A DNA stretch of 64,000 nt from Owenia fusiformis (taxonomy: Eukaryota; Annelida; Polychaeta; Sabellida; Oweniidae), in assembly GCA_903813345.2 (NCBI GenBank), contig CAIIXF020000008.1, positions 35,426,867 to 35,490,866 of the forward strand, read 5' to 3'. Positions 619 through 45,600 of the stretch are shown piece by piece. Numbering within the stretch: position 1 is the first letter of the stretch; every line of letters begins with the position of its first letter. Made by a program: the position numbers and the translations under genes. The notes below the pieces were generated by a model. The model had not been told where the DNA came from. It did no database searches and saw only the letters and a list, made by a program, of their open reading frames with translations.

Positions 619-3600
619 CTAAAATAAAAAAATAAAATATAAAAATAAAAAATTAACATATCCATCAGAGTTGTTCCATCTGACAGAATTAAATTAGTGA
701 ACAACTTGCACCTTTTTAATTTAAAGCGCAATTTATTCATTTTCTACATGAACTTTTCAAGATCCAGTTATTTTAAAAATGAAAATTTATATCAAAGTCT
801 AGTAATTGTGTTAGTAATATATCAAAAATCAGAAATATTTCACGGATTATCAATGATGGGAATAAAGCTATTAGCCTATTTAAATGTTAAGTTTTGAAAC
901 ATTTTAATAATTTATAATTTTTGTCCTTTAATTTCACTAGTTATGTGCCAAGCTTCCTCACTCTCCAGAGAGCTGTGAACAGTTAGCCCCTAATTGTTCA
1001 TAAATACAACGCAGACTTCTGACTGAACTGGGAATTGAGCCAGGGACCTCTTGCACTGAGAAGCACATATTTAACAATCAGACAATCTTACCACAGCATC
1101 CTCTCCTGCTGCATCAATCTCATCTTGGATGACTTTGAAACTCAGTAGAATCTCTCCCTTCTTTGTTTCTTGTAGAGTATGCCATTGTGGGCCATCCTGG
1201 TGTAATAAAGACATAAATCATACAGGCGTACAAAGACCGACCACCGACCTCCAAGCACCCAAGCGTGGATTTTGCACCAAAGCGTGGAGATTGGAGATTG
1301 TTTGGTCTTTTCTGCACAGCCTATATCATACTATTTTTTTATGTAAGCGTGGTAATGTTTGTGTTTTATTATATTTTCTATTTTATTTGTTACAACCTGT
1401 AGAATACTCTAGCAGCTACTTGAGAATCCATCACTTATTTTGGACCCAAGAGAATTTTTAATAACAAATTCATAATATGATCCCACATTTAGCCAAGTTT
1501 GATAGCAAGTGAACAATTGCACTTTAATGAAAATTAAGTGAATTTCATGTACTGGTCTTTTTATTTGTTCTGTAGTTATCTTATTACATGCTTCAGGAAC
1601 GGAAAATCAAACATTGTTAATGTAGTGGGACACCAATATTTCAATATTATGTTATCACAAAATTGCCCCTTTGTGCTGTATTCATTGTCTCTATTTATTT
1701 TAATTTCAAACCTTCCTTGAAATGTTGGTCCAAAAATGGCAAAAATCACTTAAAAAGTGCTCAGAATGGTGAAAAACTGCATGATTTTGAAATAAATTTT
1801 GGCCAGGGGGGGGGGCTATGTTTTTGTATCAGCTGAATTTAATTGGACATTAAGAAAACCAAATTTCTTATTAAAAGAGTAAACTTTGCAAAGTGCTTCT
1901 AAAAGGGTGTCCATACCTTCTTAGATTGCTCCTGTATATCTGCATATGTGAATTTAACACTTCCCATGAAGTCTCTTGTGATCAAAAAGTCCTTGTCCCA
2001 TACTTTCTGAAATAAAAAAGCAGATTTTTTAAAGTAAATAATTTTGTATCAAAACTTTTTAAATATTACATGATCCCACAGTCTCTGAAATGAAATACCC
2101 ATATTTTTTAAAGCAAATCATTTCATATCAAAATATGGTATTCATCACGTGATCAAAAAGCACTTGTCCAATAATTAATCTCTGAAAGGAAATAAGCATA
2201 TTCTTATAAGTAAATCATTTTTAATCAAAACATAGTGTTAATCAACTATCAAGTAAAAAAAAACAAAAAAAACTATCAAGTGGCCATGTTGAAAAATTCT
2301 CCTTGAGCAGAGATCCTACACCCATAAGGCATAAGATTTGAACAATTATTATATAATAGTCATTGCGAAACAGAGCCTCTTGTGGTTCCATGTGGCGCAA
2401 TACCTATTTGTTGACTTATCGGCACTTCCCTTTATATAATTATCAATAAGTATCAAATTAATTATTACTGTCTTACAACTGAGAAGCTCTGTGAGGAGAA
2501 ATGTGAATAACAACAATCATGTTTTTAGCTATGTCTCAAACATAACAGATAATTAGAACTTTGAATTCCTGTGATTATAATATTGACTTACATGTACATC
2601 TTCATCGTATAATTAAGCAGCCATAATAGTATGGAAACATGCAAACCTAATTTGCCAGTCTGGCAACATACCAACCTTTCATACCAATCTGGTATGAAAG
2701 AACTGACATGAGTGTTGCACTGAGACAAAATAACCTTTTGTATATAATACATGGACAAACACATTAACAAATCAAAATGATCAATTGAGTCTCAACAAGT
2801 GAAACTAGGTCATAGCAACGCCAAAGGGTAGCAAATCCCATCAAACAGTCATGGCTGCCATTTTTACTTCTTTTTCAGTTGTAGCAAAAATCGTAAAATA
2901 ACACACATAAAAATGGACAGTTTTATATATTGTGCCTAAATTACTGTAAAATTCACACTAAAATGGCTGCCATTTTTAAACGAGCAGCCATTTTTAAAAT
3001 CAGGTTTCAAGCAGATATTTGAATGAGGATATCGTGAATAAAGAACAACTGGTAAAAGAACTTTTCAGGATAAAGTTACATACTTGAACTAGACTCAGTT
3101 GGATAATGAGAGGCTTTTTCTATTAATAAGTTCATGATGATTAACAATATAAGTTGACAATGATGACTTTGAAGTTTAATTTGAACAGGTGCAGAAATAG
3201 GTATCAAGTATCCATTCACTAAAATTGTCAATAATATTGCAAAGATTTTTGTTACAAAAAGAATATAATCTGGAAAGTCCAATAACTTCGTTACAAAACG
3301 GCAATAATAAAACATACTAGAAAATATTTATGGCCTTAATTAAGCACTTGTATAAAGGACGATTCTCGGTTTGGAGAACGAAGTTCATCAATCTAAATTA
3401 GCATTATCCCTGCTTCGGACAAATTTGATTTTTTTACATAATATAGATTTGAATGTCTTCGTTTGAATAGTCATAATTTAATTTGGGTAATATTTCTAGA
3501 TTTTTCGCAAAAAAATATTCGCGCAGTACACTGATGAACTTCTTTCCCCAAATCGAGACTTGTATTTTATTGAATCGGTCAAATTGAGCGTTATCCCTGC

Positions 3601-6600
3601 TTCAGACCAATTTGTTATTTTTACATCTTGTAGATTTAAATGTCCTCTTTTGAATATTCATAGTTTAATTTGGGTAATATTTCTATATTTTTCATGAAAA
3701 AATTATTAGCCCAGGAGACTGTTCTCCAAACCGAGAATCGTCCTTTAACTTAAAATACAAGTACAATTCCGGTCATCAAATATCTCCCTTAGTTTTTGCG
3801 TAAATATGGCTAATTTTATAAATTAAAATGTTTTAAAAACTTGAATTTACTAAATAATTTTTCTCTCATAATACTTGACTTAGATTTCCAAAGATTCATT
3901 ATCATAATATTTAAGGTATTATCAATCATTTTTTGAGAGATTTTTGACGTAATTTTACATATAAATGTACAATCAAATCCATTTAGTTCTTTAGTATCAT
4001 TAATTGAAATTTATGAAATATGGCTTTTATTAGACTAGATACGTAGAAATAATCCTGTTTTGCGTCATTATACAAGATTAATGTATCAGTGTGAATTGTC
4101 ACTTTAATATATCTTCAAAATCAGAGTGTGTCTCTTTAAGAAATTGAATAATGATGTAACTCTACAAGGTAGGTATCAGTTAACATGTATTTAATACATA
4201 AGGCATGAAACAAGTTATTACATATTCAGATGTTCTCATGTTGGAGGGAGTATTCGCAATAAGGTATGTTTAAGTTATTCAATTGAATAACATTTATTTT
4301 CTATTTTTAACAGTGCAGAAATAAAAAGTTAGGATAAAAGAGTATGACTGAAATAATCAGATAATAAGAGTAACATTGATAGAAATTAATCTGGAAAGAT
4401 TAATTGAACTTAAGAGAAACTATTTATTGGTCTTAATTTCAAACCCCACATCAGCACTTTTAATAAGGTACAGTTTCTTTGTGTGTCATATCATTATGTG
4501 TGATTGTGGGGTTTGTTTGAAAACTTCGTTTATTCTCAACTTTGTCTACATCTTTCAGATTTGCACAAAAAGTCCAATTATGTACCTAGATAATTAGTTG
4601 AGGGTAAATCAATTCCCACAATGTATGAGAATTTTGAATATTCAGTGACCTTATTTCTAAAAGAACACAAATATAGGTCACTGAATTTCCCCTTTTTACA
4701 TGCATATCTACATGCACTTACTAACCCTCAACTAATAACAATCTAGGAATGTTTATGTACTCTTTGTGCAAATCTGAAAAATCAAATCTGTAGACCATGT
4801 AAGGAATGAGTTATGTGCTCCTGAAAATAACATGGACTTCAATTTAGGGAGCCATTGAACAGTATACGCAACTACCTAAAAAAGTTGTCAAATGAATATT
4901 ATTGTAATCCTTTGGACTTTATTCGGAAAAACATATTGTTTTAATGAAAAATTTCACATTTTTTCAGAAAATACTCCTGATCAAAAATATGACTGTTTAA
5001 AATGGCTTGCTGTGTATATGGACCATTTCTAAAAGAAAGACAAGTAAAACATATTTCTACAGTTTATAGTTATTTTAAATAGTTCCTCTTTAATTTATGA
5101 CTATCATTCCAGTTAAAAGCACACGCAGCACATGAGGCTTTCATTACCAACCAGGATACATGACAATTAACTGATATAATCCTAATTGATACAACAGTTA
5201 TACAACATATATACATGTACATATTGATCAAACAATTAATGGTGGCGCAATCAAGTAGAATAGAATCAAGAACAACAAGTTGAAGAGACCGAAATATGGA
5301 GTTGTCGGGATATAACGGAACTGTTATTTCTAAATATAATACAGTTTACGCAGAGAAGAATTTAATTACGCTGATATTCATGTTCCTAATGTTGATCATC
5401 GGGACACTCGGGAACTTGTTGGTGCTGATTGTGTACAACTTTAAAACAGCGAAAACAACAGCCAACTGCTTTAGTCAGACTCTCGCTGCCGTTGACTTCT
5501 TCAGTTGTCTACTGGTCCATCCCTTTATCATTGACAATTTAATCAACATGTACAACCAGATTGGTGCCATTTGTAAAATATTCACATTTCTGAACTACAC
5601 AAGTCTCGCTGTGCAAACATTTCTGCTGCTGTCTATAGCTATAGACAGATACTACGCTGTATGTCAACCTCTGATGTCGGTTAGAATACGAAAGAAAAGG
5701 ATGATTATTTTGATTTCAGTGTCAACCTTTGTAGGAACTGTCATCTGTTTACCAGTGATAGAGATTTATGGAATAAATACCACTGCTACTGTTGTTGGTG
5801 ATGTGCAATTTCATGGGCGAACATGCAGTACACAACTAAAACACAAAAGCAATGTTCTTGTTTCTATTTACAACTTATGTTTAATGATAGTTGTTTTTGT
5901 CACTTTTATAATTATGATGTTTTTGTATGGGAAAATAGCAAGAACTGCCTATTTGAGTTCAAGTCGAATTGGGAATTCTTCTAATATCAGAAATAAAAAT
6001 CAAACAAAAATATCGTTAAAAAAAGTTACAGCACAGATTCAGACATCACATTGTGATGGAGAGTCGTGTGATGAAGTTGTTGATCACAATTCAAAGCTTA
6101 AATTTACAGATGCTATTGACAAAGAGCTATCAGTTCATCTTGGAAATGGTGAAACGTCATCAACACAAGCTAAGGCAGAAACATCTTTAAAAACACATGA
6201 TGTGATGAAAGCCAATTCAACAACACTTGATGGGTCACAAAACGCTTTAGCAGCAGACAGCAAGATAAAGAACACTTTACCTAAACTTGATGGGTCACAA
6301 AACCCTTTATCAGTGCACAGCGAGACACAAAATCCTTTACCAACACTCGATGGGTCACAAAACCCTTTACCAGTACACGGCGAGACACAGAACCCTTTAC
6401 CTACACTTGATGGGTCACAAAACCCTTTATCAGTGCACAGCGAGACACAAAATCCTTTACCAACACTTGATGGGTCACAAAACCCTTTACCAGTACACGG
6501 CGAGACACAGAACCCTTTACCTACACTTGATGGGTCACAAAACCCTTTATCAGTGCACAGCGAGACACAAAATCCTTTACCAACACTTGATGGGTCACAA

Positions 6601-9600
6601 AATGCTTTAGCAGGACACAGCGAGATAAAGAACACTTTAACAACACTTGATGGGTCACAAAACGCTTTAGCAGGACACAGCGAGATAAAGAACACTTTAA
6701 CAACACTTGATGGGTCACAAAATGCTTTAGCAGGACACAGCGAGATAAAGAACACTTTAACAACACTTGATGGGTCACAAAATGCTTTAGCAGGACACAG
6801 CGAGATAAAGAACACTTTAACAACACTTGATGGGTCACAAAATGCTTTAGCAGGACACAGCGAGATAAAGAACACTTTAACAACACTTGATGGGTCACAA
6901 AATGCTTTAGCAGCACACAGTGACATAAAGAACACTTTAACAACACTTGATGGGTCACAAAATGCTTTAGCAGGACACAGCGAGATAAAGAACACTTTAA
7001 CAACACTTGATGGGTCACAAAATGCTTTAGCAGCACACAGTGACATAAAGAACACTTTAACAACACTTGATGGGTCACAAAATGCTTTAGCAGCACACAG
7101 TGACATAAAGAACACTTTAACAACACTTGATGGGTCACAAAACGCTTTAGCAGCACACAGTGACATAAAGAACACTTTAACAACACTTGATGGGTCACAA
7201 AATGCTTTAGCAGCACACAGTGACATAAAGAACACTTTACCTACACTTGATGGGTCACAAAATGCTTTAGCAGCACACAGTGACATAAAGAACACTTTAC
7301 CTACACTTGATGGGTCACAAAATGCTTTAGCAGCACACAGTGACATAAAGAACACTTTAACAACACTTGATGGGTCACAAAATGCTTTAGCAGCACACAG
7401 TGACATAAAGAACACTTTACCTACACTTGATGGGTCACAAAATGCTTTAGCAGCACACAGTGACATAAAGAACACTTTACCTACACTTGATGGGTCACAA
7501 AACCCTTTATCAGTACACGGCGAGACACAAAACCCTTTACCAACACTTGATGGGTCACAAAACCCTTTACCAGTACATGGCGAGATAAAGAAACATTTAC
7601 CAACACTTGATGAAAGTTCAACCCCTTTTCAAAAACATGACACACAAATCCAATTCAAGGCAAGTGATGATATACAGATAGTTAATGTAAATTTTGACCC
7701 CAAAAATATTAGAAACATTCCTGCAGAAAATGAAAGGTCCAAATCTAGACAAATTAAGGACCCGAGAACTACTGAAAATGAAATAACCACAAATACAACA
7801 TCCAATATTAAAAACAGTGGTTTGAAAGCTACAAAAATATTATTTTTAGTTACTGCGATATTTCTACTTTCGTGGATTCCATATTGGGTTATTACAATAG
7901 GAGAATTGACCAATGACGAATCGTGGCACAAAAAGACAGAACTTGAATCGCCATTGCAGACTTTACTCTGTCGTTTTCTTCACCTAAACAATGCCATAAA
8001 TCCAATATTATATACAGTTGGACACAGGCATTTTGTGCTTGATTGCAAAGTATGCTTCAGGAAAATTAAAAGTTTCTTATTGTAGAATAGTGTAAGTCAT
8101 AAACAAGGGATTAACATGCAAAATGCTACCACCTGCCACTTGTTACAGATGCCAACCGCTGACTGCCGAATGCCAAACACAGTCCACAAAAAGTTTGAGA
8201 CTATAACAATGTGTCTCTTATGGAGGTGACAGAAACAATTTTATGATTTAAGAAGAATACTTTGTTTCTTTATACAGATGTATTTGATTGTAAAAACAGT
8301 TGCAGGAAAATGTGAGTAATAGTAATATACTGTATATAGTAAAACCTGTACATAGAATAGAACACCTCTGTAAATGGAACAACTTTAATTTTTCAAGTCA
8401 TGTTACCCATTTATTTAATTCAAAACGATCCTCTGTTCATATTGGATATTGGAGGACTTTTTGTACAGATGTGTTCTACTTAATTATAGAGGTTTTATGG
8501 TAAATTTGGACACTGCTAAAAATAATTAGGAGCCAGTTAAATGATGGATAAGCAAAGTAAGCAAAGATGTTTGTGTAGGAATTGAAAAGGCAACATTACA
8601 TAGGGGTTCCCTCATTTCACAAGGTTGTAAATCCAACTTTACTTAATATCAAGTACATGACCAAATCTCAATTACAAAAATGCTTTTAAAAATATTGTTT
8701 ATTATTCAGATATATTGTTGTACTTGGTGTTGTATTTCAATTGGTTGTAAATACAGCTAAATTGTATATAATGGTTATGTAATAGAAGGTTTTAGATTTA
8801 AGGTTCCAAGGCTGCTCCACTTGTTTCACTATTTTTTAACACGTAAGCAATATCATGATATACTACCGAATGTTAATTACAAATTTTAGTGAATTAAAGT
8901 TCTATTTAATCAAACATTTTAACAATATACTTCTTCCATGGTTTCAAAAAAGTTTCAAGGCATCTGCCATTTGTTGCAGATGTCAAGCTTGTAGTGATGA
9001 GATAAAAATTAAGTAAAAATTAGAGTGAAAATTCATATCTTTTGTATCTCAATGGATATGGGAAGTAATAAAAAATGTAAGTTGATTTCATGATGATAAT
9101 TTTGAAATGCTTAATACACCTAATCATATAGATCAATGTAGAAAATATCAAGCTACATGACTGATACGTGAACTGGTGCAATTAATAATAATATGTACAT
9201 AACGATAATATTATGATATACATGTAATGTATTATAGAGTACTTGATAACCTGTCATCAATTTCCTAATTGCTATGTTAGTGTAAGTGTATGCTACAGAA
9301 TACCTGTAACAATAATTAACGTGATGTATATCACGCCTACCTGATTTTACTATTCTATCTATGCTTGCGTGTGTGAAATTGGATTTTTGAAACTAAAAAA
9401 ACGGCAACTCTAAGGAGTAGTAACTTCCACCAAAGAAACATATTTGATAAATACCTTGTCGTTTGACACTTGAGCAGAGTCCTATGTCCCTTGAGGATCA
9501 AGCTATACAATTTGAACCAAATCTGTCAACTGGTATTTGAATTATCGTTCTTGAAAATGGTGGCTATTTGAAATAATCGACCATATTTAAAATGCCTTTT

Positions 9601-12600
9601 TTAGTAGAGGTCTTTTGCCCATAAAATATTAGCCAATGAAATTCCATGAATTCTTAATGATTCAATGTCAATGTGGTATTTGATGTCAATGTGGTATTTG
9701 TGTTATCAGTTTACAAAAAATTGTGACCATTTGAATTCAGTGACTATCTTGAAAATATCTTCTTGAGCAAATCCTATTTGTCCAGGCATCAGCATATTAA
9801 ATTTGAACCAAATCTGTCAACTGGTATGTGACTCATAAAAGAAAAGATAACATTTCTTAGGAAAAATGGCAGCCATTTTGAATTGAGTGACCATATCTAA
9901 AATTTTGCTTGAGCAAAGATCCTACACACATAAGCCTGTAAAATTTGAACCAAATCTGTCACTGGTATTCGAGTAATTACCCAAACAGTCTGAAGGACAG
10001 ACAACTGAATTAACAACTTCTCTATATCCCGCCCAAACTTCGTTAAGTGGGATAATTATTTTATGTTTAGTGAGTCATTGAAGCTTATTAAGGTGCGTCA
10101 GGTCATACTAAATCTTATTTAATAGCATTTAACAATAAATGTGATATAAATTTTTCTAAAGCTTGACTTTACAATTAATGATTCTTTTTATATTCAACAA
10201 TATTAGAGTGTTTATCCTGGTTTAATTCTGAAATTTCATTGGTTAACAATTCCCTTGAACTTCTGAACATCCACATAAAATAAAAAAAAGCACAAATAAT
10301 AAAAAACAGCCCATTTATAAAATACACTATAAATATGTTTATTCCTTTCCATTTCTCTTTAAATGTGAATAATATTTTTATCTAATTTACTATTTTCATG
10401 GTTATTCATTCATTTAATGTCAAAATTCTTTGTCATACATCTCTCTACTTGCCTTTTTAATGAATAAAACCATAAATGCTTAGTTATCTTATCAACGGTT
10501 TAACCCAGACTCTTAGGTATTTATACTGATTAAAAGATACATACTGCGCAATAGATTTTTAACTTTAGGACTTGGAAAGATTTGGACCTCAGAGAATATT
10601 CTTAATATACAAACAATTAAAATTACTACTTAAAACATTTGCAGTTGTTCAGCAGTTTGAACGTAGAATTTTAATTCTGAAGATTGGAATACATGTACGA
10701 GTCGACATTTAGACAATCTACATGTAATGACAATATAATAAACTTTTTTTCATTTGTTAATAATGAGAACAAACCTGAGCTATTGAACTGTAAGACAAAC
10801 AGATAATGATGTCATAAGGAGTCTTTTATATCAATGATGATGATATGATCAAGTGATGATGCATTTCTAGAGAGGGAAATTATTAAACATCATAAAAGAG
10901 ATAGAGTGCATAGTCCAGATACACTAAACAATCAGCACTGAAAAATAAAAGCATTTGCAAGTCAAACTGTTATACTTAAACTTAAACAGACAACTGGAGT
11001 CAATAAAGGGTCTATAATATCAGTGAGAAAAGTGATAATGCATTTCTAGTGAGGGAAATTATTACACATCATCTAGGAGATGAGTGCATAGTCCAGAGAC
11101 ACTGAACAATCAGCACCGATGAATAAAAGCATTTGCAAGTCAAACTGTTATACTTAAACTTTAACAGACAACTGGAAACAACAGACAATAGCGTCTACAC
11201 TAACTATTGATACATTTTATTCCCAAGCAATCAACATTTCAGTTAAACTCTAAGAAGCACTGGGTGAAGCTATCTGGAATATACCATTGATTCCCTCTAT
11301 ACATACAATCTGACTTGCTAGGTTTTTTACTACTGACCAAGCATCTTAAGGAATATATGATACAATATAAAACATCGAGGAATATAGGAATTGGCCCGAG
11401 TGACTCAAATGACATACTTCAATTTATCAAGATGTAACTTGGATTTTGGGTGTGAACAGTGCATATGATAATAGGGACTTCTTGCAAGATTGAATTCATA
11501 TGCTATATATTTAAAATATAGACATATTATAGCCCAAAATTTAAAGAGTAAAGTATCCATATTTATATAGATGAATCAAATGAAATTTAAATCAAATTAA
11601 AATAGTCCCAATTTACATGAACAAATATTCTTTGACTACCTAAAGAGATAAAGAAGCCAATGCAAGTTTGAAATAAATTTTGTGCACTGTGAGACAGCAT
11701 GGATCAAGCCACTGAGAGAAAAATACAGCAGTTATTGGCAGGCCTAGTATTATGCACTGGAATTTCAAAACCATACCTCTCTGCAATCAATTCTATATAT
11801 ATTTACATTGAAATAAACTGGGAACTATTTCGAACAATAGATCCCACTTTTAAATTCATTTTATATTTTTCATTCCTTTCCCTTCATCTAATATTGCAAG
11901 CATTTATATTGAATTTCTTGTTCTTCAATTACCATCCAGGCTATTTGATATTTTGGCTTCTCATTATGTTGATGGATCTACTAGTTAATTATTATTTCTC
12001 AGTTCTAGGTATTGAAAAACTTCTCAATTATGCGGAATACAACAAATTTTATTTACTCTTTCATACATTAGTTCTGGTAAGTGCCTCTATTTCCCATTAT
12101 CATCATTGCTACCCTGATGGGAAGATAATATCCCATGTTCTCTTTATTCTATGTATTACACTTTACATATGCATGCTAAAAATGCATAAAGACACCAACA
12201 CTGGGAGAAAAATACAGATGTTTCAATCTGACCTACTCTGGTAACTTAACAGTGAATGAAAGAATAAGCTTCATGAATCGAATCAACATGACTGAAATTT
12301 GTCACTTTGAAATAAAATTTACGGTACCCATTCTTGTTTCTACTCAGACCTCCCTTGTCCTATAACCCAACCAAATGGCAATATATGCTTGGTTATGTTT
12401 GAAGAGGATCAAATAAGTCACTGATGGAGACTGTTTCTCAAAGAGCAAAATGATGTACCAATATCATCTTCTAATTATGGATTTTTGAGGTCAATTTTTC
12501 TGAATATGTTATGAAGTAGGCTATTGATCAAAAATTGCATAAATATGTAAAAAAAATGTGTAAATGAAAATGTTTAAATGTTAACTAATTGTTGAATTTT

Positions 12601-15600
12601 TTTATCTAATGATTCATTGTAATACCAAAGTATTAGACTAAGTATTTTCTAATCAGTATGTATATATTTTTGTATATGTACATTCAATATAGATTTTTAT
12701 ACCATGATCAGTAAGATAAAAATTATATTCAGTTTTTGCTGTTAACCTTGTATACAACCCATATCGGTGACATATACATTCTGTAAATAACTCATATTTT
12801 GTATTTTTGTAAGCTATATTTTATTTCTGAAACAAATATCTGAATTAAGTAAACACATTTTTAAAAATTTTCTGTAAAATATTGCCCTCGAGTTTTAATT
12901 CTGAATATCATTGTGATCTATGTATTATGTATTCATCCAAGATAGCTTTTTTTGCGTTCAAATGTTCAAAATTCAAATGTTGAGATTTATTTAATTTCGA
13001 TTTTTTAAACTATTGCATTTTTCATTTGTTGATCGTTATCGTTCAAGATGATAAGATATCTTCCCTCTGGATAAACCCAATAGTACGATAACATCATTTC
13101 TGCGGGCAATATTGAACAAATATTTCACTCTATTGAGGTGAATACCTGTACATCTTTCACAAGTAATATTCCACGAAGCCCGAAGGGCAAGTGGAATATC
13201 ACCTTGTGAAAGTGCTACAGGTATTCACCGAAAATAGAGTGAAATATTTGTTTTATTATATCACTGTCTAGCTAAACATCCCTAATATTATTAAGTCATT
13301 AAGTCTTCAGATATTTTTACAAATCTACTCGGTTCGTCTGCCATTTTGACTTAAACTGAACTAAATTATTTACACTGAACGAAAACAAATTCTTTGAAAA
13401 TTCCCGGGAGCGTGGGATATCGCTAGATATCTCATGGTTGTCTTATCTGATTAGCATTGCCATTGAATATCGCCAGATATCCCACGACATGTGACCCGGT
13501 TTTGACCAATCATACTGTCGCTAGCTAGATAGTGATATAATAAAGTGAAATATTGGACCAAGGGCCGAAACTAAAACCCCTAGAACTGGCCCGGCAAGGT
13601 GGTAATAATACATAATTTCTTCCTAAGTATAACATACTGTACATATATGGAATATGGATGTGAAAACCATAATCATTCATCAGTAAAGTGGTTGAATAAT
13701 ATTTTTAATATTTTAATTTTATTTTTACTTTTAATATTTTTGATCTTTGACAGCAAAAAATACCAGGCTAAGTAACAAACTAAACCAGGATTGTTTTAAA
13801 GAAAACAGATGTAAACTATGAAGGAAACAAATCGAAAGATGATAAATGGTTATGTTGATATGCATGACAAATGATTATGTTGATATGCATGACAAATGAT
13901 TATGTTGATATGCATGACAAATGATTATGTTGATATGCATGACAAATGATTATGTTGATATGCATGACAAATGATTATGTTGATATGCATGACAAATGAT
14001 TATGTTGATATGCATGACAAATGATTATGTTGATATGCATGACAAATGATTATGTTGATATGCATGACAAATGATTATGTTGATATGCATGATGACATTG
14101 TAACTATAGCAGAGGTACTTCTGATATTTTTAAAAAAAGTTGACATGACACGGTTATGTGTGTGATTCCTACATCATGGAACATATCATCCAGCATATCA
14201 AAGATATGCGAGTAGTAAACAATTTGAATTTTGAGCGTTATTCTAGGTCCATTGTTGGTCAAGTAAGATTATCTTATTGATCAATATATGTGGACATATA
14301 ACTACATGTAAATAAAAATGTGTAATCATTCTGAAATCATGAAATTGATAGGTGTCAATGTTGAGATCATGCATCTTTTATTGAAGTTATTGCTGTTAAT
14401 AAATGTTTTGAGATTTGCATTAATGTATCAATAGTAAGATAGGAGGTGAATACTATGCAAATCCTATCCTATGTATACGAAATGTAGCTATGGGATAATC
14501 AAAGGATAAATCCCAAAGCACATCATTAGAATTCTCATGTACATCTATACCTTCCCAAGAATTTTTGTGGTAAACTTTAAAAGTAATGGTATTCACATAA
14601 AAAATGTTAATGCAATATGTAATCTACTTACCATTATTAATTATGAAAGCATAAAATAATGACTTATAGCGCTTTCTGTATTTTAATGTTTATCATGTGA
14701 TTCACTATAATAATATCATAATGACTAAGTAAAATGAAAATAAAAAAATGTAATAAAGTATTATTTGTTATTTGGAAATTTGAATAAAAAAATATTATAA
14801 ATGCCAGTCACTTCAAAGCAACCTGGGATGTTAGTATGGGTGATATTCAGCTGACTTAAAATGATTCATAAATGTAAATTCAAAATTCATGTAATTTATT
14901 TTATCTTTATTATGAATGTTGTGCCTAAATACTTTATGCTTAAATACATTATACATTATGCATAAAACTGGCTACTGTTAAGAATCATATTAATGAAATA
15001 TTCAGCACAGTGATGTGATATTCAAAATGATTAGACTGACGTACTTTCAATTCAAAATGGCCCCTTAAACAGCTTAATTTACCAAAACATGATTGTGTAA
15101 GAGACAATATCAGATTTCAAACTTAGGAGAACAAATAAATTTAAAAACACGATATACCCGATGATACATTTTGAGATCCCACAAAGATTGAATCAATTAT
15201 ACAGAAACTTTGCCAGATCTAATGTAATTTCTTCTATAATAGCAATGTAAAATAGGATAGTTGCCACTGCCATCAATTCAAAATAATGAAAGAACTGTTC
15301 AAGGAATAACCAAACTTTTCATTATTGAGCAGCCATATTAAAAAAATCCTTCTTTAAGTAAATGTCTTTCATCCACAAAAATTTGAATCAAAATCAAAAA
15401 CATGAATATGAGTATTACGGATACATGTACAGTAGATGAGTATAACGGATACATGTATATGAGCATCACGGATACATGTATATGAGTATCACAGATACAT
15501 GTATATGAGTATCATGGATTCATGTATATGAGCATCATGGATACATGTATATGAGTATCACGGATACATGTATATGAGTATCACGGATACATGTATATGA

Positions 15601-33600: not shown

Positions 33601-36600
33601 ACAACATGTACAATTAAATTGATCTTCAGTGTACCAATAACAGCAGATTATATAAAAATGGACTGTAACAAATACCCGGATTTGTTGGTATAAAATGGGA
33701 TATCACTTTTTATGCCAGCATAAAATGGGACATCACTTTTTTTGCCAGCATAAAATGGGACATCACTTTTTATGCCAGCATAAAATGGGACATCACTTTT
33801 TTTGCCAGCATAAAATGGGACATCACTTTTTATGCCAGCATAAAATGGGACATCACTTTTTATGCCGGGCATAAAAAGTGATATCAAAAAATACCAACAA
33901 ATTTTTATATGATCTGCTGTTCAATGTATTCTTTACCATTTGAAATACATTTCCATAATCTATCATATCAACTGAGTGCATAAGTGCAGAAAATTCCCCT
34001 TAATGAATCTAAATATCTTCAAGTTTTCCTGGTACAAAGCATAGGAACCGTGGGTATTATAATGGGCATATTGAAAGCCCATGGTATTATTAGAAAATAT
34101 TTTAGAACACAAATTTATATAAGCCCAAAATATTGGAAAGCTTGCTAACTTAGTCTGATTCTCCCTTTAATGTTACTACTTTATATAGCATTGCCACTTT
34201 ATAAAATCTTTTGTGATACCACAGCAATAGATAATGTTCCCTTGTGTTTGCTAATGAAATGTAGCACAATGATTAATAAAAAATGCATTATGGGCCCATT
34301 AAAAAATTGGAGTAAAAATAGTCTCATAAGTGGGTTGTGGGTGGGATTTACAATGAGTTATTCATAATTTTATGGCAAAGCTGGTGTCATATACTGGTAA
34401 TGAAAATGGATTTGTTGCAAATGAAATTAATCAAGCTGATGTGAAAAAGTCGGCTTAACTTGAGATTCCAAGGTGTAAAATTTATCATGTCTATTGTTTT
34501 TTTAAGTCATTGTCACTATTTTGTCTAGTCATTGTTGATATTCTTTAGACAAGTCATTGTCACTATTTTGTCTAGTTATTGGTGATATTCTTTAGACAAG
34601 TCATTGTCACTTTGTTATTGATATTCTTTAGATAAGTCATTGTCACTATTTTGATTAGTCAATGTCATTCTTTTGTCCAGTCATTGTTGATTCTTTAGAT
34701 AAATCATTGTCATTCTTAAATGTTTAGTCATTGTCAATTATTTTGTCTAGTCATTGTTGATATTCTTTAGATAAATCATTGTCATTCTTTTGTCTAGTCA
34801 TTGTTGATTCTTTAGATAAATCATAGTCATTCTTAAATGTAATTAGTCGTTGTCAATTATTTTATCTAGTCATTGCTGATATTCTTTAGATAAATCATTG
34901 TCATTCTTTTGTCTAGTCATTGTTATTCTTTTGTTTAGCAAATTCTCTTATTTTGCCATTGTTATTTTTTTCTTTTGTCAATTGTTTCCTGGTATCTTTT
35001 TTATTTTTTCCTCTTGAAATCAGACTTTCTCCATTTGTAAATAGTGCAGGATGGACCAATATCTACAACCAGGAATGGAGTAAAAAGTTCAGTGAGGTGC
35101 CCTGCCAAGTGAAAAGGCATTGTCGAGATCATTGCTTTTACAAAATTAGATACTGAATTTTTCAAATCAATTGTATCTTATCTAAAAATGTACGTACCAA
35201 CGAAAGCTGGTTTTACATTTGACAGGACAGGATCCAAGTGACGCTTCAGTAGATCAGCAATGGTTGGGGAACTGAACACCCACCTGGAAAAGAAGAAAGT
35301 ACAATTGGATAACTAGAAAGTATACTTGAAAACCACGGGGTGCCATCGAATAATTTTGGCAACGTACCGGAGAACGACATTTTACTAAGAAATGGAATAA
35401 TTTAGCACAATATATTTTTAACTAGAGTTCTATTTTGATTTTGACAAAAGTAAGTATTCCATGCAATAACTATTTCATTCATGAGTTTGTAGGAATTCTG
35501 TTGGAACCCAGTTCTGATCAAGTACGAAGTTATTGAAATCGGCGCAGACGGACTTTACTCCGAAAGATGGTTTTTCGATTATAACTTTTCACAACATTTA
35601 GGTATAGACTTCTGAAAAAAGTACAGAATAGTCCTTATACTTTTGAATAATTCTGTTATTTCTGATTCACACGACTCTGATTTGTTTAATTAAAAAAAAA
35701 GTTTTAAAAATATTACTTAGGAACGTAACCGGAGCTGGGAACGTAACCGGAGCAGATCAGTTGAATTATTTAATCAAAAAAAATTAAAATATATGATTTG
35801 TAACATGGTCATTTTCACATTGTTTATATTTCTACTTTTCATATTGACCAATCCCCAACCATGTCATTTTAACAGGTCCCTTCATTACTTTACACCAGTG
35901 TTTCAAATATTTAATTCCAATGTTTTCAATTCTTTTGTATACTTTCTACTATATCTTCCTTTATAAGCAATTTTTAGCTTTTCATGGTGTGATTGTTTCG
36001 TACTGTTTTTGTATTCCATATAATAGCATTCACTCACATGTAGCTGAGTTTGGGTGTTGGCCCAGCCTAAGTAGTTGCTTAGAGTTAGATGATAATGTAG
36101 ATTGTACAGAGAACGTTTGAAGTTTATTTGAAATAGACTATTTTATATATTTTAACTTTAGTTATCTGTTACTTTTATTTGCCACCCACGGGCCTTACAC
36201 TCGCCCCGTTACAGATTTAAAGCACATATACTAATTTAAAAACATACGGGATTGTTCGAATGCGTATTTATTACATTTAATTTAAAGAAAAAAATTTATC
36301 CATTGTGAAAAATTAAATTTGGTATTTACCATGCATAAGTGCACTTACCTTAGAAAGGCTATCAGACATAGAACAATCCACTGTGAAAAAAGCCAAATAT
36401 AGTTTGTACTATAGCAAACTATTTTTTAGAATATCCCCCATATAGTTTGAATATCACCTAAAATATGGGCGAGAATAGTTTCTCCCATATTCCTAAAAAC
36501 GGAACACTTTAATATAAGTCCTGATATACTCTCCCATACGCCCATATAAACTGAAATAAGCTGCATATATCATTGCAGAGTGTATATCTTTACTGAACTA

Positions 36601-39600
36601 TTTTCCACTTATACGCCTCAAAGTAGGAATCAAACCTACTATATGCGGTGAAAAACAACTTATATTAAATTAAAACAGACTATATCAAACTATACTTGAC
36701 CGATTCTTCTCTTATTCTACCTCAAAACAAACTATACGCGTCTTATACGCGATATTACGTAATAGCTTCAGTTCCCGAGTTTGTTGTTTTAACAGATTAA
36801 AAGCAAAGTCCAGCATCGAATGTATTTTGTTTTTAATGCTAATTAATGCGCTTGTTCAGATTAATCTGGTCATTTCTACAACTGAGGGTTCTAATTTCCA
36901 TCAAAAAGTCATTTATAAACTAAGCTTTTTACTTTTACTAAATTGGGCAATGGCAGTCGAATTATAATTAACACTGTGTTAAATTTTGGATTCATTTCAT
37001 TAAGTCTGTGAAAAGTTACATTTTTCAATTAACTTGGTATTGAAGTAAAAATAATATAGAATAAAATGTTTAATATAGTTGCAATTAGAGGGAATCGTAG
37101 AGAATATTTTTTCCTGTACAGTAGGCAGTTATTTCCTGTATTATTGCGGAATAAGATATAATAACTATTTTTAAAAACTAATTTTTCTTTAATGATATTA
37201 TTCGTGTATTATTTGAAGGGAACAACATATATTGCCATATAATATAGAATAATATTCTAGTCAGGAGCAAATAATATGTTGGCATTTGCAATCAAAACCG
37301 GATTATATGAGTTTATTTTTGAGCCGTTAATCCCTAAGTATTCCATTCCTATGAAATGAGTTTCATTCACACTAATTAATCCGTTTGTTAGGATTAATTT
37401 CTCCAGCGTATGGTTCTTATTTCTCAAAAAGATTATTTGCAAATAAAGTTTTTACATATTTATTTGATTGTATAATGTCCATCGAGTTATGATTAAGATT
37501 GTGTTAAATTTGGGATTCAATCGATCAATCCATTAGAAAGTTAATTTTTTATTCTTAATTGATGAGTTTTCCTCACATTTTTACTGTATTGTTTCTCTGT
37601 CACATCAGGTTTACAACAAACAACATTTAAATCCCCCGGCCTCTTACACAGGTACGAACAACCATCTGTACTATTCACTTTGCCAACCAAAAAACAGTCA
37701 TGACACAAACTGCTCACTATTCAATTAATATATTACGCATTTTATACAAGCCCGTACCTAAGGACCCCCTTCCCATGGCCAACAATTTCTTAAAAGAGAT
37801 GCAGTTTTTCATCATTCACATACCTGTACATGTATTGACATGTCAGAGCAATGTAATTAGTAAAACTTTAATCCCTAAGTATTCAATTTCTATGAATTGA
37901 GTTTTGTTCACCCTAATAAATAATCTGTTTGTTAGAGTTAATGGATTAATCTCTACAGTCTATGTTTCTAATTCCCACAAAAATAAATTACAAATTAAGT
38001 TTTTCATATTTATTTGATTGTATAGTATACCTCGTGCTATGATTAACAATGTGTTCAAATTTGGATACAATCGATTAACTCATTGGGAATTAATTTTTTG
38101 ATTTTTAATTGTGGGGTTTCCTCACAATTTAACTCGATTGTTTCTCTATAACAAACAACATTTAAAGCCCTCTCTTACACAGACACAAACAAACACCACT
38201 ATTCACTTCGCAAACCACACAAAACTGCAAAAATATTCAGCTCAATACATTACACATTTGATACAGGTATGTGGCCATGAGGGGAGGGTCGTTGGGTTCA
38301 TGTGAATCCCCCACCCCTTTGCCAAGATTCTTTCAAAATCATTGGTATGTTTTGAAAATTGACCCCCTGGGCTCAAACTTATTACGAGCCTGTAATATAC
38401 CAGAAATATTGATTCCATCTGACAAATCACTTATAATAAATTAAGAAATAACATGCATTATGTAACTGATACAAGTTCATGTAGTATTAAGCCATATTAG
38501 AACAAAGTCAAAACTTATATTCTTTCACATTTCACAATTCATGCGGTTTCTGTTATCCATATGATATCTGAGATAAACACCCGTGATAAACAACAGAGAT
38601 TAGCCTTTGCAATACAATTGTTTCTATTAGAATCGGACCATTTCTGTTTATTACAGCTGGTTTTATTAATTATTCTTTGTTTTCCGTTTCAATATATACA
38701 TATACAAAAGGTGCAAGATTCGGTATGTTTAGTTGATAATGTGATAATGCAACTAAAGAAACGGGCGCATTTTACATTTATTGCAAATGTTTCATCTGAC
38801 AAATCGATGATTATGTTTTGAGCAAATTGGTGCATGGAAGAACAAACTGTTCCAAATAACATACGGTATGGACATACAGCTATGTCAGAGCAATATGATA
38901 AGTAAGACTTTAATCCCTAATTATTCAATTTCTATAAAATGAGTTTCGTTAACACTGATAACTAATCTGTTTGTTAGAGTCAATGGATTAATTTCCTACA
39001 GCCAACGATTCTAAGTTCAACAAAAAAAATTTGCAAATTAAGTTTTTTATATTTATTTGATTGTATATTATCCCCCATGTTATGATTAACATTGTGTTAA
39101 AATTTGGATTCAATTGATCAATTAATTGGAAAAATAATTTTTTAATTCTTAATTAATAAGTTTTCCTCACATGTTTACTCTATTGTTTCTCTGTCACATC
39201 AAGGTTACAATAAACGACATTTAAATCCCCCTCTTATATTACAAAGGCACAACCACCTGTATTCACTTTGTCAACCACAAAAACAAACAGTTTTGACACA
39301 GAAATGCTCAATATTCAGCTAAATACATTACGCATTTTATACAGGCCCATACCTAGCGACCCCCTCCCCTTGGCCAACAATTCTTTCAAGATCATGCAGT
39401 TTTTCACCATCTCGTACATGTATTGATATGTCAGAGCAATATAAATAAAACTTTAATCCCCAAGTATTTAATTTCTATGACATGAGTTTTGTTCACTGAT
39501 AACTAATCCGTTTGTTATGAATTAAAGGATTAATATCTACAGGCGATGGTTCTGATTTCCACAGACAAATAATTTGCAAATTAAGTTTTTCTAATTTATT

Positions 39601-42600
39601 CGATTCTGTAGTGTCCCTCTTGCTATGATTAATATTGTGTTAAAATTTGGAATTAATCGATTAACTCATTGAAAAGTTAATTTTTTGATTTTTAATAAAT
39701 GACTTTTCTTCACCTTTAATCCACAGTTATTACCCAAAAGTTGAAAGAAACAGTGAAAGGTTAAACTAGGCTCATGAGTATGTTTCAATTTGAGGCATAG
39801 TATGTGATGTGCTCCAGGTACATCAGTATATTAAAAAGTTCAATTTGGCGCATTAGTATAGTTAAATTTGGCGCATTATTTATGATGTTCAAAGTACATC
39901 CTTACAGTGAAAGATTAAACTTAGCTCATGAGTATGTTTCAATTTGGGGCATAGTATGTCATGTGCTCCAAGTACATCAGTATTTTAAAAAGTTCAATTT
40001 GGCGCGTTAGTATAGACCAATTTGGCGCGCTATTTATTATGTTCAAATTTCATCCTTGTATTGAAAGGTTAAACTTGGCTTATGAGTATGTTTCAATTTG
40101 GGAATAGTCTGTGACATGCTCTAAGTTCATCAGTATATTAAAAAGTTCAATTTGGCGCATTACCATAGTTCAATTTGGCGCGTTATTTATGATGTTCAAA
40201 GTAATCCTTACATTGAAAGGTTAAACTTGGCTCATGAGTATGTTTCGATGAGACATAGTATGTGATGTGCTCCAAGTTCATCAGTATATTAAAAAGTTCA
40301 ATTTGGCGCATTTTCATATTTCAATTTGGCGCGTTATTTATTATGTTCAAAGTACATCCGTAACATTGAAAGGTTAAACTTGGCTCATGGATATGTTTCA
40401 ATTTGGGACATAGTATGTGATGTGCTGTATGTTCATCAGTGTATTAAAAAGTTCAATTTGGCGCATTATCATAGTTCAATTTGGCGCGTTATTTATGTTG
40501 TTCAAAGTACATCCTTACATTGAAAGGTTAAACTTAGCTCATGAGTATGTTTCAATGGGACATAGTATGTGATGTGCTCCAAGTTCATCAGTATATTAAA
40601 AAGTTCAATTTGGCGCATTATCAATGTTCAATTTGGTGTGTTATTTATGATGTTCAAAGTACATCCGTACATTGAAAGGTTAAACTTGGCTCATGAGTAA
40701 GTTTCAATGTGGGACATAGTATGTGATGTGCTGTAAGTTCATCAGTATATTAAAAAGTTCAATTTGGCGCATTAGTATAGTTCAATTTGGCGCATTATTT
40801 ATGATGTTCAAAGTACATCCTTACATTGTAAGGTTAAACTTGGCTCATGAGTATGTTTCAATTTGGGACATAGTATGTGATGTGCTCCAAGTACATCAGT
40901 ATATTAAAAAGTTCAATTTGGCGCATTAGTATAGTTCAATTTGGCGCATTATTTATGATGTTCAAAGTACATCCTTACAATGAAAGGTTAAACTTGGCTT
41001 ATGAGTATGTTTCAATTTGGGAATAGTCTGTGACATGCTCTAAGTTCATCAGTATATCAAAAAGTTCAATTTGGCGCATTACCATAGTTCAATTTGGCGC
41101 GTTATTTATGATGTTCAAAGTACATCCTTACATTGAAAGGTTAAACTTGGCTCATGAGTATGTTTCGATGAGACATAGTATGTGATGTGCTCCAAGTTCA
41201 TCAGTATATTAAAAAGTTCAATTTGGCGCATTATCATAGTTCAATTTGGCGCGTTATTTATGATGTTCAAAGTACATCCGTAACATTGAAAGGTTAAACT
41301 TGGCTCATGGATATGTTTCAATTTGGGACATAGTATGTGATGTGCTCCAAGTTCATCAGTATATTAAAAAGTTCAATTTGGCGCATTATCATAGTTCAAT
41401 TTGGCGCGTTATTTATGTTGTTCAAAGTACATCCTTACATTGAAAGGTTAAACTTAGCTCATGAGTATGTTTCAATGGGACATAGTATGTGATGTGCTCC
41501 AAGTTCATCAGTATATTAAAAAGTTCAATTTGGCGCATTATCATAGTTCAATTTGGTGTGTTATTTATGATGTTCAAAGTACATCCTTACATTGAAAGGT
41601 TAAACTTGGATCAATTGTATGTTTCAATGTGGGACATAGTATGTGATGTGCTGTAAGTTCATCAGTATATTAAAAAATTCAATTTGGCGCAATAGTATAG
41701 TTCAATTTGGCGCATTATTTATGATGTTCAAAGTACATCCTTACATTGTAAGGTTAAACTTGGCTCATGAGTATGTTTCAATTTGGGACATAGTATGTGA
41801 TGTGCTCCAAGTACATCAGTATATTAAAAAGTTCAATTTGGCGCATTAGTATAGTTCAATTTGGCGCATTATTTATGATGTTCAAAGTACATCCTTACAT
41901 TGAAAGGTTAAACTTGGCTCATGAGTATGTTTCAATTTGGGACATAGTATGTGATGTGCTCTAACTTCATCAATATATCAAAAAGCTCAATTTGGCGCAT
42001 TAGTATAGTTCAATTTGGCGCATTATTTATGATGTTGAAAGTACATCCTTACATTGAAAGGTTAAACTTGGCTGATGAGTATGTTTCAATTTGGGACATA
42101 GTATGTGATGTGCTCAAACTTCATCAATATATTAAAAAGCTCAATTTGGCGCATTAGTGTAGTTCAATTTGGCGCATTATTTATGATGTTCAAAGTAAAT
42201 CCTTACATTGAAAGGCTGAACTTGGCTCATGAGAGTATGTTTCAATTTTGGACATAGTATGTGATGTGCTCAAACGTCATCAATATATTAAAAAGCTCAA
42301 TTTGGCGCATTAGTGTAGTTCAATTTGGCGCATTATTTATGATGTTCAAAGTAAATCCTTACATTGAAAGGTTGAACTTGGCTCATGAGAGTATGTTTCA
42401 ATTTTGGACATAGTGTGTGATGTGCTCAAACTTCATCAATATATTAAAAAGCTCAATTTGGCGCATTAGTGTAGTTCAATTTGGCGCATTATTTATGATG
42501 TTCAAAGTAGATCCTTACATTGAAAGGTCAAACTTGGCTCATGAGTATGTTTCAATTTGGGACATAGTATGTGATGTGCTCAAACTTCATCAATATATTA

Positions 42601-45600
42601 AAAAGCTCAATTTGGCGCATTAGTGTAGTTCAGCTTGGCGCATTATTTATGATGTTCAAAGTAAATCCTTACATTGAAAGGTTGAACTTGGCTCATGAGA
42701 GTATGTTTCAATTTTGGACATAGTATGTGATGTGCTCCAAGTTCATCAGTATATTAAAAAGTTCAATTTGGCGCATTATCATAGTTCAATTTGGCGCGTT
42801 ATTTATGATGTTCAAAGTTCAACCTTACATTGAAAGGTTAAACTTGGCTCATGAGTATGTTTCAATTTGGGACTTATTATTTGATGTGCTCTCAGTTCAA
42901 TATTAAAAAGTTCAATTTGGCGTGTTAGCATACTTCAGTTTGGGGCATTATGAACATCATAAATAACGTGCCAAATTGAACTATACTATAATGCGCCAAA
43001 TTGAACCTTTTAATATACTGATGAATTTACAGCACATCTCATACTAGGTCTCAAATTGAATTAAACATACTCATGAGCGGAGTTTAACCTTTTTAACCAT
43101 TTTATTCATGAAATTGTAAAATATAATGTACTCTGTAATTACTGTATGCTATGTAATTGACAAATATATTGAAATATATGCATATTTTATACTTAAACTT
43201 TGTGTTTTGTTCTGTATCGTTTTGTGACACTTGTTGATAAGGTTGATCCGTACTATTATATATGTTATAGATTGTACATGTAACCTAATAATTTGCATAC
43301 AAAAATAAGTTTTCGTTCAGCGCAATCCCTCATCCTTCATAATATTTAATCCCTGGGATTTTATAACGATTCCTTATTGTATTTCATACATTTGAATATT
43401 GTTTTCTTTTTAAAATTTAAAAATGCATCATCATCATCATCATCAACTTCTGCCTTATAATTATACAAGAATTAATTTTCCAATCCTCCATATGGCTTCA
43501 CTCTTAACCTCCGAACCCCCTCCCTGACTAGGGGTATAATTTGTCATAGGAAAGTCAGGATTGTCTCAATTTAAAACTAACAAAGAAATCAAGATACGCT
43601 TTACCTCATTTTAATTTTAATTTTAACTACACCGAAATTGCTGCTGATTTTTGGTAAGACTAAAAACAAACTTCAAATTAATATGCGCTTATCTTACTCA
43701 AAATGGATAATAAATAATTTACCGATTTACCCAAATTTTTCATTCCACTTTTTATATTGACTTACATTTTTAAAATGCATTTAAATTCATTTAAAATCAT
43801 ATACTTCAACATCATAAAATGTTTAATGAGATCTCAGACATTAAGTTTGATTAAGCTTTCTTAAGTGAAATGCATGATTTTATTTGTTTACATTAGCGCT
43901 TAATTGAAAAATAAAATAGGATTAACTCCAAGCAAATTAAGGCACATCAAAGAATATATAGCCTCGCGTATAAGAGGCGTATAGTTTGTTTTTTGATTAC
44001 GTAATACATACTATACTCATCTTTTCTATGCACTTATATCCTACTATTCCTGGCTCTTAAGAATAGTCGGAGAATAGTTCAAACGATATTTAGTATCGTA
44101 GAGTATATACCACCAATACTAAATGTTCCGCTTCTGAGGCAAGAATAGTTTGTTTCCCATACCAAATACAATATAGTGAGGACATACTGAACTATATTCA
44201 CAAATAGTTTGCCACTTATACGCTACTATATTTGGCTTTTTGCACAGTGATCATTGTATGGAGAATGAAGTGATTAAATGTAGTAAGCAAATAATTCCAT
44301 TTGATTTCACCCATTGTATTTGTTCAGCAAACTATTAGAACCCACTCTGTTATACTAATTTCTAATTAATTTCTAATTTATACTAATTGCCATGCATTGA
44401 TTTTCCTGTAAGTGAAGGGTAATAAATAATGCTCATTTTAACATTCATATGTGTTTGTAAATAATATATATGCTTTAAATCATATATTGTATTTTTTTAA
44501 ATTATATAATTCAACTGATCTGCTCCGGTTACGTTCCCAGCTCCGGTTACGTTCCTAAGTAATATTTTTAAAACTTTTTTTTTAATTAAACAAATCAGAG
44601 TCGTGTGAATCAGAAATAACAGAATTATTCAATAGTATAAGGACTATTCTGTACTTTTTTCAAAAGTCTATACTTAAATGTTGTAAAAAGTTATAATCGA
44701 AAAACCATCTTTCGGAGTAAAGTCCGACTGCGCCGATTTCAATAACTTCGTACTTGATCAGAACTGGGTTCCAACAGAATTCCTTCAAATTCATGAATGA
44801 AATAGCCATTGCATGGAATACTTACTTTTGTCAAAATCAAAGTAGAACTCGAGTTAAAAAATATATTGTGCTTAATTATTGCCATTTCTTAGTAAAATGT
44901 CGTTCTCCGGTACGTTGCCAAAATTATTCGATGGTACCCCGTGAAAACTGGGAAAGTACATTTGAATTATAAGAAAGTACACTTAAATATTCAGATTTAG
45001 TACATGTAAACTGTACTTGAATTATAAGAAAGTCTACTTGAATATTTAGAAAGTACTATTGAATTTTAATAAAGTATAATTGGATAATTAGAAAGTACAC
45101 TTGAAAACAAGAAAACATACTTGAATAATTAGTAAGTACGCTTGAATATTTAAAAAGTACACTTAAGAAAAAAAATACAATGAATAATTAGTAAGTACAC
45201 TTGAATAGTACAGGATTTTATTCTGTATTTTCAATAACTGTTATACTTGAACAATAATAAAGTATTATTGAATAATTTCAAAGTAATACTTGAGTAATAA
45301 AAATAACTGAGAAAAAGAAATACAAGTATACTTAAATAATTAAAAAAGTATACTTGAAAAATCATGAAGAAAAAGAAAGTTTACTTGAATAATTTGATAA
45401 GTATAACTGAAAAATTAGAAAGTATACTTGAATAAGAAAGCACCACGGAAGATAATAGTTACAAAGCAAATGTGGCTAATGATGAAAAAAGACCAGATAT
45501 TAGTAATGAAAAAGTGGATCCCATCAAGTTAGAAATTACAAAAGGTATACTCGTAAATATGGGAATAATTACTATTTTCGTATCATTCACCTCTTTATAA

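What the first reader, a model, noticed from the sequence alone, without database searches (positions are those of the whole stretch)
1917..45440. Tandem arrays are repeatedly anchored on 3' splice sites of one gene
Six of the 17 introns of the SMP-C2 gene have a tandem array touching the acceptor (exons starting at 2,006; 21,355; 23,919; 25,546; 28,728; 35,283). In four of them the unit contains the acceptor AG and the first 12-47 bp of the exon. Units differ completely in sequence and length (22, 37, 68 and about 90 bp), so these are independent events, not one repeat family. I see no comparable array copying any donor. This suggests a recurrent local duplication process at acceptors, or selection for redundant acceptors. 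I know of isolated tandem acceptors but not of such serial arrays in one gene.
Basis: partly seen in the sequence, partly recalled or inferred. Interest (0 to 1): 0.88.

Follow-up and report, generated by a model that had tools for sequence, protein, structure and literature searches.

The report
Minisatellites straddling four intron ends
In one animal gene, four of sixteen introns end in a run of repeated copies of the splice site plus the first bases of the next exon; such arrays are already known from lancelet genes, and their concentration on acceptor ends here is suggestive but not proven.

Summary
The core observation is real. I rebuilt the minus-strand SMP-C2 gene as 17 exons and 16 introns, in frame. 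At 4 of 16 acceptors (exon starts 28728, 25546, 21355, 2006) the intron carries tandem copies of the acceptor plus 16-48 exon bases (periods 22, 37, 68, 79 bp); 0 of 16 donors do. Of the other two claimed cases, the array before 23919 only abuts the splice site, and that before 35283 lies at the end of a dispersed element.

Acceptor versus donor is not significant (P = 0.10). Local copying is common in these introns (327 of 1500 random 31-mers), so 4 of 16 is background by that measure; a null forbidding exon disruption expects 0.35 acceptor-crossing arrays. Redundant acceptors are unlikely: 0 of 56 upstream copies gives an open transcript.

This is a known kind: lancelet "mirage" minisatellites (PMC3087553, PMC3902484). 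Most likely, slippage or unequal exchange copied junction segments, and only the exon-attached copy is productive, so arrays grow into the intron with little harm. Four in one gene is notable. Taxon and RNA are unknown.

The parts
21308..22059 (-). 68-bp array, 11 copies; each copy about 24 intronic bases ending in AG plus 44 exonic bases; overlaps the exon by 48 bp
   Evidence: TRF; copy alignment, AG kept in 10 of 10 upstream copies
21272..21355 (-). exon E10 (C2 domain strand); start is the productive acceptor
   Evidence: gene model; joined with neighbouring exons it gives Pfam C2, E 1.2e-16
25516..26976 (-). 37-bp array, about 40 copies counting two degenerate ones at the upstream edge; 9 intronic bases ending in AG plus 28 exonic bases; overlaps the exon by 31 bp
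   Evidence: TRF 25516-26902; copy alignment to 26976, AG in 38 of 39 upstream copies
25365..25546 (-). exon E6 (start of first C2-like domain)
   Evidence: gene model, phase-consistent; Pfam C2 only E 0.035, below cut-off
28713..28967 (-). 22-bp array, degenerate, 8-12 copies; overlaps the exon by 16 bp; AG kept in 5 of 11 upstream copies
   Evidence: TRF 28713-28902, relaxed 28713-28967; copy alignment
28600..28728 (-). exon E4 (SMP domain); acceptor at 28728 preferred
   Evidence: Pfam SMP_MUG190-like 60.2 bits with this start against 54.0 with a start 23 bases further in; weakest of the four boundaries
2006..2244 (-). 79/97-bp array, 3 diverged copies of intron end; exon part (28 bp, 1978-2005) copied at 2149-2176 at 86%
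   Evidence: copy alignment
1917..2006 (-). exon E15 (C2 domain strand)
   Evidence: gene model; Pfam C2 across the join, E 1.1e-24
23925..24128 (-). 23-bp array that stops 6 bases short of the exon at 23919; abuts the acceptor, copies no exon
   Evidence: acceptor copy test score 18, not above shuffles
35283..35333 (-). 2.5 copies of a 21-bp unit that form the pyrimidine tract before the exon at 35283; tandem tail next to a dispersed element
   Evidence: relaxed TRF; self-BLAST of 35334-35799 against 44943-44477; ends printed
15745..15790 (-). small AT-rich 15-bp x 3 array crossing the donor of exon E14 by 3 bp; the one donor-touching array at default TRF settings
134..57915 (-). SMP-C2 gene, 17 exons and 16 introns modelled; no stop in the joined frame, 3' end of the last exon not established
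   Evidence: domains

Best explanation
These are mirage-type minisatellites: local tandem duplications of a short segment straddling a 3' splice site, amplified by replication slippage or unequal exchange in a gene that is unusually rich in tandem arrays. Each arose from the gene's own junction sequence (shown for three sites by the exonic sequence in the units; probable for 28728). Only the copy still attached to the whole exon and its donor gives an open mRNA (shown in silico), so the extra copies become part of the intron and the array can grow upstream without changing the protein. Normal use of the exon-attached acceptor is inferred, most likely by exon definition (complete exon plus donor), since local acceptor strength does not single it out. 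The absence of full donor arrays here is either chance, stronger selection against duplicated donors, or a real mutational bias; I take chance plus selection as most likely.
For: Copies carry acceptor and exon start at 4 of 16 acceptors, AG kept in 55 of 62 upstream copies. The copied exonic sequence codes for conserved domain residues in a frame that continues across the joins (Pfam C2 1.2e-16 and 1.1e-24). The exon copy is nearer to the array copies than they are to each other in all four arrays (0.929/0.913, 0.904/0.869, 0.806/0.686, 0.747/0.613) and ranks first by mean identity in three (1 of 11, 1 of 12, 1 of 3; 17 of 40 in the fourth). All four periods (22, 37, 68, 79) are not multiples of three, unlike the 60-bp array in the coding sequence at 6221-7612. 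0 of 56 upstream AG copies is productive. TRF arrays cover 20.5% of the window. Lancelet precedents with the same anatomy and reported normal splicing: PMC3087553 and PMC3902484, passages.
Against: No RNA, no second haplotype and no relative was available. Under a coverage null acceptors are not enriched (P = 0.45), so nothing forces a link with splicing at all. In the 37-bp array the exon copy ranks only 17 of 40 and differs from 33 of 39 upstream copies at the first exonic base. E4 rests on a weak upstream donor (AG|GTTTTG) or a missed exon, and its exonic bases alone do not beat shuffles.
Confidence: 0.72

Rival explanations
1. Acceptor-directed process: something about 3' splice sites (T-rich tract, R-loops, pausing) makes them hot spots for tandem duplication, so arrays are seeded there repeatedly and donors are spared.
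For: 4 of 16 acceptors, 0 of 16 donors; with at most 60 exon bases covered, 26 randomly placed arrays cross 0.35 acceptors on average, and 4 or more in 0 of 3000 runs; 31-mers in the last 50 bp of introns have local copies in 30% (n = 80) against 1% (n = 80) in the first 50 bp after donors.
Against: Fisher P = 0.10; last 100 bp versus first 100 bp of introns P = 0.43; 22% of random intronic 31-mers have a local copy anyway; one gene chosen after the fact; precedents duplicate donors too (BflGb9; lancelet PGBD5; human ABCA7 VNTR).
Confidence: 0.13
2. Selection for redundant or decoy acceptors: the copies are kept because they back up or regulate splicing, for example by giving non-productive mRNA.
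For: No deviation at the AG in 34 of 34 copies compared in the 37-bp array and 10 of 10 in the 68-bp array; all 56 upstream AG copies tested would give a premature stop, which would suit a regulatory poison-splicing role.
Against: AG conservation is not more than expected from the overall divergence (P = 0.25, 0.53, 0.84); the last six intronic bases give 0.07, 0.89, 0.10. AG kept in only 5 of 11 upstream copies of the 22-bp array. The base before AG varies in 5 of 10 upstream 68-bp copies. A back-up site that always gives a stop cannot rescue the protein.
Confidence: 0.05
3. Arrays came first and the exons later grew into them (exonised satellite).
For: Arrays are common in the introns (25 merged arrays in the gene span), and the upstream edge of the 37-bp array meets a mobile element (26970-27355).
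Against: The copied exonic bases encode residues inside conserved C2 domains, so they are exon first. The exon copy is the most central in three of four arrays.
Confidence: 0.04
4. Artefact: wrong exon starts or misassembled repeats.
For: No RNA was available; the E3-E4 join needs a weak donor or a missed exon; the first C2-like domain is below Pfam's cut-off.
Against: 17 exons join in one open frame; the copies differ by scattered substitutions and indels, unlike simple collapse or duplication of reads.
Confidence: 0.06

Closest known systems
Lancelet 'mirage' minisatellites (globin BflGb6/BflGb9, Adh3; also TnC and PGBD5), PMC3087553 and PMC3902484 (passages seen); the Adh3 paper itself is not held
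   Same: Tandem units that include an intron-exon boundary; unit length differs from site to site (10-72 bp in Adh3, 150-160 bp in globin, 60 and 108 bp in PGBD5); many but not all copies keep the splice dinucleotide; more than one array in one gene (PGBD5).
   Different: Here four acceptors of one gene and no full donor array; up to about 40 copies; taxon unknown; no RNA or haplotype evidence here.
Human ABCA7 intron 18 VNTR, PMC5954066 (passages)
   Same: Minisatellite (25 bp) whose unit includes a used splice site; the canonical exon-attached site is mostly used, one-unit retention gives a frameshift.
   Different: Sits on a donor, one array in the gene.
Dual-specific splice sites in tandem repeats (UBC, VCX3A), PMC10809524 (abstract and passages)
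   Same: Splice sites repeated in every unit of a tandem array.
   Different: Those arrays are coding and spliced unit by unit through AGGT; here periods are not multiples of three and 33 of 39 upstream 37-bp copies have C after the AG.
Tandem (NAGNAG-type) acceptors (recalled)
   Same: Several acceptors close together.
   Different: Those are alternative sites giving usable mRNAs; here 0 of 56 upstream copies does.

Membership tests
Mirage minisatellites | tandem units that span an intron-exon boundary | tested here: met
   4 of 16 acceptors, copy alignments
Mirage minisatellites | units of differing length and sequence at different sites | tested here: met
   22, 37, 68, 79 bp; no self-BLAST match joining arrays over 3.5 kb apart
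Mirage minisatellites | many but not all copies keep the splice dinucleotide | tested here: met
   AG in 55 of 62 upstream copies
Mirage minisatellites | either exon boundary can be duplicated | tested here: inconclusive
   0 of 16 donors by alignment; one small AT-rich array crosses a donor by 3 bp at default settings
Mirage minisatellites | regular mRNA splicing is not disturbed | not testable with these tools
   no RNA; in silico only the exon-attached copy is productive
Mirage minisatellites | length instability between haplotypes or cells | not testable with these tools
   single sequence, no genome held
Mirage minisatellites | occurrence in lancelets (where described in the passages seen) | not testable with these tools
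   taxon of the window not established; two viral-contig scans found no relative
Dual-specific splice sites in tandem repeats | AGGT in the units, usable as both splice sites | tested here: not met
   37-bp array: C after AG in 33 of 39 upstream copies
Tandem alternative acceptors | alternative sites give translatable mRNAs | tested here: not met
   0 of 56 upstream AG copies open; actual use not tested

The most novel reading that the evidence does not exclude
In this genome the 3' splice site itself is a recurrent seed of minisatellites: duplication is initiated over the stretch from the pyrimidine tract to the early exon, while donors are spared, so introns grow preferentially at their 3' ends by accumulating dead acceptors, and the copies act as non-productive decoy sites that tune expression of the gene.
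Probability: 0.1. Interest if true: 0.75.

Novelty: new member of a known kind. Interest (0 to 1): 0.42.

Why it matters
Four boundary-straddling minisatellites in one gene make it a good natural test of how the spliceosome picks one of up to about 40 near-identical acceptors, and of whether introns lengthen by tandem duplication at their ends. If a genome-wide count confirmed an acceptor bias, it would point to a mutational mechanism tied to 3' splice sites. As it stands it extends a described phenomenon.

Tried and rejected
Genome-wide test: not possible, no genome is held for this window. Relatives: two viral-contig scans, with the SMP part of the protein and with the retrotransposon ORF, found none; I did not use the genome-contig scan. 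Excess conservation of the acceptor within arrays: tested and not significant in any of three arrays. Acceptor strength as the reason for choosing the exon-attached copy: a matrix from only 10 acceptors of this gene puts one upstream 68-bp copy far above it (13.3 against 5.1), four of 38 scored upstream 37-bp copies and two 22-bp copies level with or above it, so rejected. Idea that the most upstream 37-bp copy marks the original acceptor: dropped, since its flank is the end of a dispersed element; no sign of the array on the element's far side (best fit 18.4, best shuffle 32). A start of exon E4 23 bases further in: scores lower (54.0 against 60.2 bits). A missing exon between E3 and E4: 4 mechanical candidates, none convincing. 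Failed or partial scripts: the first copy scan returned nothing because of an alignment setting and was replaced; one search stopped with an error after printing the random-position count and four distance bins, and the rest was rerun. TRF run on the minus strand did not report the 2006-2154 array found on the plus strand, so it was added by hand to the placement simulation, while the trivial AT-rich array at 618 was left in. Rows dropped: the exon copy, the two edge copies and three copies with five or more gaps of the 37-bp array. An earlier count said 54 upstream acceptors; the count is 56. Literature: all 10 paper searches used, listings seen; two cited papers were not held. No claim is made that the four-in-one-gene case is unpublished beyond these searches.
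Full report
What was checked. The gene lies on the minus strand. Joining exons by phase and by domain continuity gives 17 exons and 16 introns in one frame without a stop from 57915 to the end of the last exon, whose 3' end is not established. Domains: SMP (MUG190-like, E 1.5e-15) and two clear C2 domains (1.2e-16, 1.1e-24); a first C2-like domain is below cut-off (E 0.035). The C2 region matches synaptotagmin-1 (4.5e-21) and the SMP part extended synaptotagmin-2 (1.8e-5) in the PDB.

The arrays. At exons 21355, 25546, 28728 and 2006 the intron holds tandem copies of the junction. Copy alignments show 10, 39, 11 and 2 upstream copies, with AG kept in 10, 38, 5 and 2, that is 55 of 62. Searching the exon edge against its own intron separates these four acceptors (scores 30-58) from the other 12 acceptors and 16 donors (10-19). 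The 28728 case is the weakest: with exonic bases alone it does not beat shuffles (22 against 23), and its exon start is preferred by 6 Pfam bits only. Of 441 exonic 31-mers, 13 have a local copy, and all start within 30 bp of an acceptor, in three exons.

The two other claimed cases. The 23-bp array before 23919 stops 6 bases short. The pyrimidine tract before 35283 is 2.5 copies of a 21-bp unit next to an element of about 466 bp that recurs inverted at 44943-44477, where the same kind of tandem tail continues. Neither copies exon sequence.

Is it specific to acceptors? Three comparisons disagree. (a) Acceptors 4/16 against donors 0/16: Fisher 0.10 two-sided, 0.05 one-sided; by TRF contact within 10 bp, 5/16 against 1/16, P = 0.17. 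(b) Against random positions: 327 of 1500 intronic 31-mers have an upstream copy; 4 of 16 is then expected (P = 0.48) and 0 of 16 donors is low (P = 0.019). Near introns' ends, 30% of 80 31-mers in the last 50 bp have copies against 1% of 80 in the first 50 bp, fading with distance, but counted by intron over 100 bp it is 6/16 against 3/16, P = 0.43. (c) Against random placement of 26 arrays, at most 60 exon bases covered: 0.35 acceptor crossings expected, 4 or more in 0 of 3000 runs (0.0003 using 17 arrays of at least 100 bp); with no limit on exon damage 3.48 expected, P = 0.45. So acceptor contact as such is at background, the neat edges inside exons are not, and donors are low. One gene, picked because it looked striking, cannot settle this.

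How it works. The units contain codons of conserved C2 residues, so the exon came first. The exon copy is nearer to the array copies than they are to each other in all four arrays and is the most central copy in three. If any of the 56 AG-bearing upstream copies tested were used, a stop follows; for the 68-bp array always 42 bases after the acceptor. Upstream copies are therefore intron or waste. Choice of the exon-attached copy is not explained by local acceptor strength; exon definition is the inferred reason, in line with classical duplicated-splice-site experiments (recalled, not tested). I see no excess conservation of AG (P = 0.25, 0.53, 0.84), so no evidence of selection for redundancy. 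The array can expand because growth goes into the intron. TRF arrays cover 20.5% of the window, so the local propensity for tandem amplification is high.

What is known. Lancelet globin, Adh3, TnC and PGBD5 genes have tandem repeats over intron-exon boundaries, called mirages, reported not to disturb splicing (PMC3087553 passages; PMC3902484 passages). PGBD5 has two in one gene. Human ABCA7 has a 25-bp VNTR that includes a donor (PMC5954066 passages). The present case fits that kind by anatomy. RNA behaviour, length instability and taxon could not be tested. The window's G+C is 30-37% per 4 kb; I draw no taxon from it.

Verdict. A true and attractive example of a described phenomenon, with an unusual number at acceptors of a single gene. 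The claim of an acceptor-specific process is open, that of redundant acceptors is unlikely.

Noticed in passing
5284-8085 (+): An intronless rhodopsin-type receptor frame (7tm_1, E 8.6e-34) sits inside the large intron between exons E14 and E15 and holds a 60-bp x 23 coding array (20-residue repeat), the period being a multiple of three.
   Followed up: partly
26970-27355 and 3354-3748: A pair of 93%-identical short elements with terminal inverted repeats (read by eye); one copy meets the upstream edge of the 37-bp acceptor array.
   Followed up: partly
35334-35799 and 44943-44477: Dispersed element, 95.7% identical in inverted orientation, each copy followed by 21-bp tandem units; one supplies the pyrimidine tract of an acceptor.
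   Followed up: partly
18241-20574 (-): Non-LTR retrotransposon frame (RVT_1 1.5e-28, Exo_endo_phos_2 3e-12) in the intron between E10 and E11; its N-terminal part carries DIEVNPGP, which resembles 2A-like peptides (name recalled).
   Followed up: no
46920-47971 and 53331-52280: Inverted pair of about 1.07 kb, 88% identical.
   Followed up: no
39750-42951: Large array of 154/307-bp units, about 20.8 copies of 154 bp, not at a splice site.
   Followed up: no
23919 (-): The acceptor of exon E7 scores very low with the gene's own small acceptor matrix (-1.5 against 5.1-13.7 for the other 15 modelled acceptors), next to the 23-bp array.
   Followed up: no
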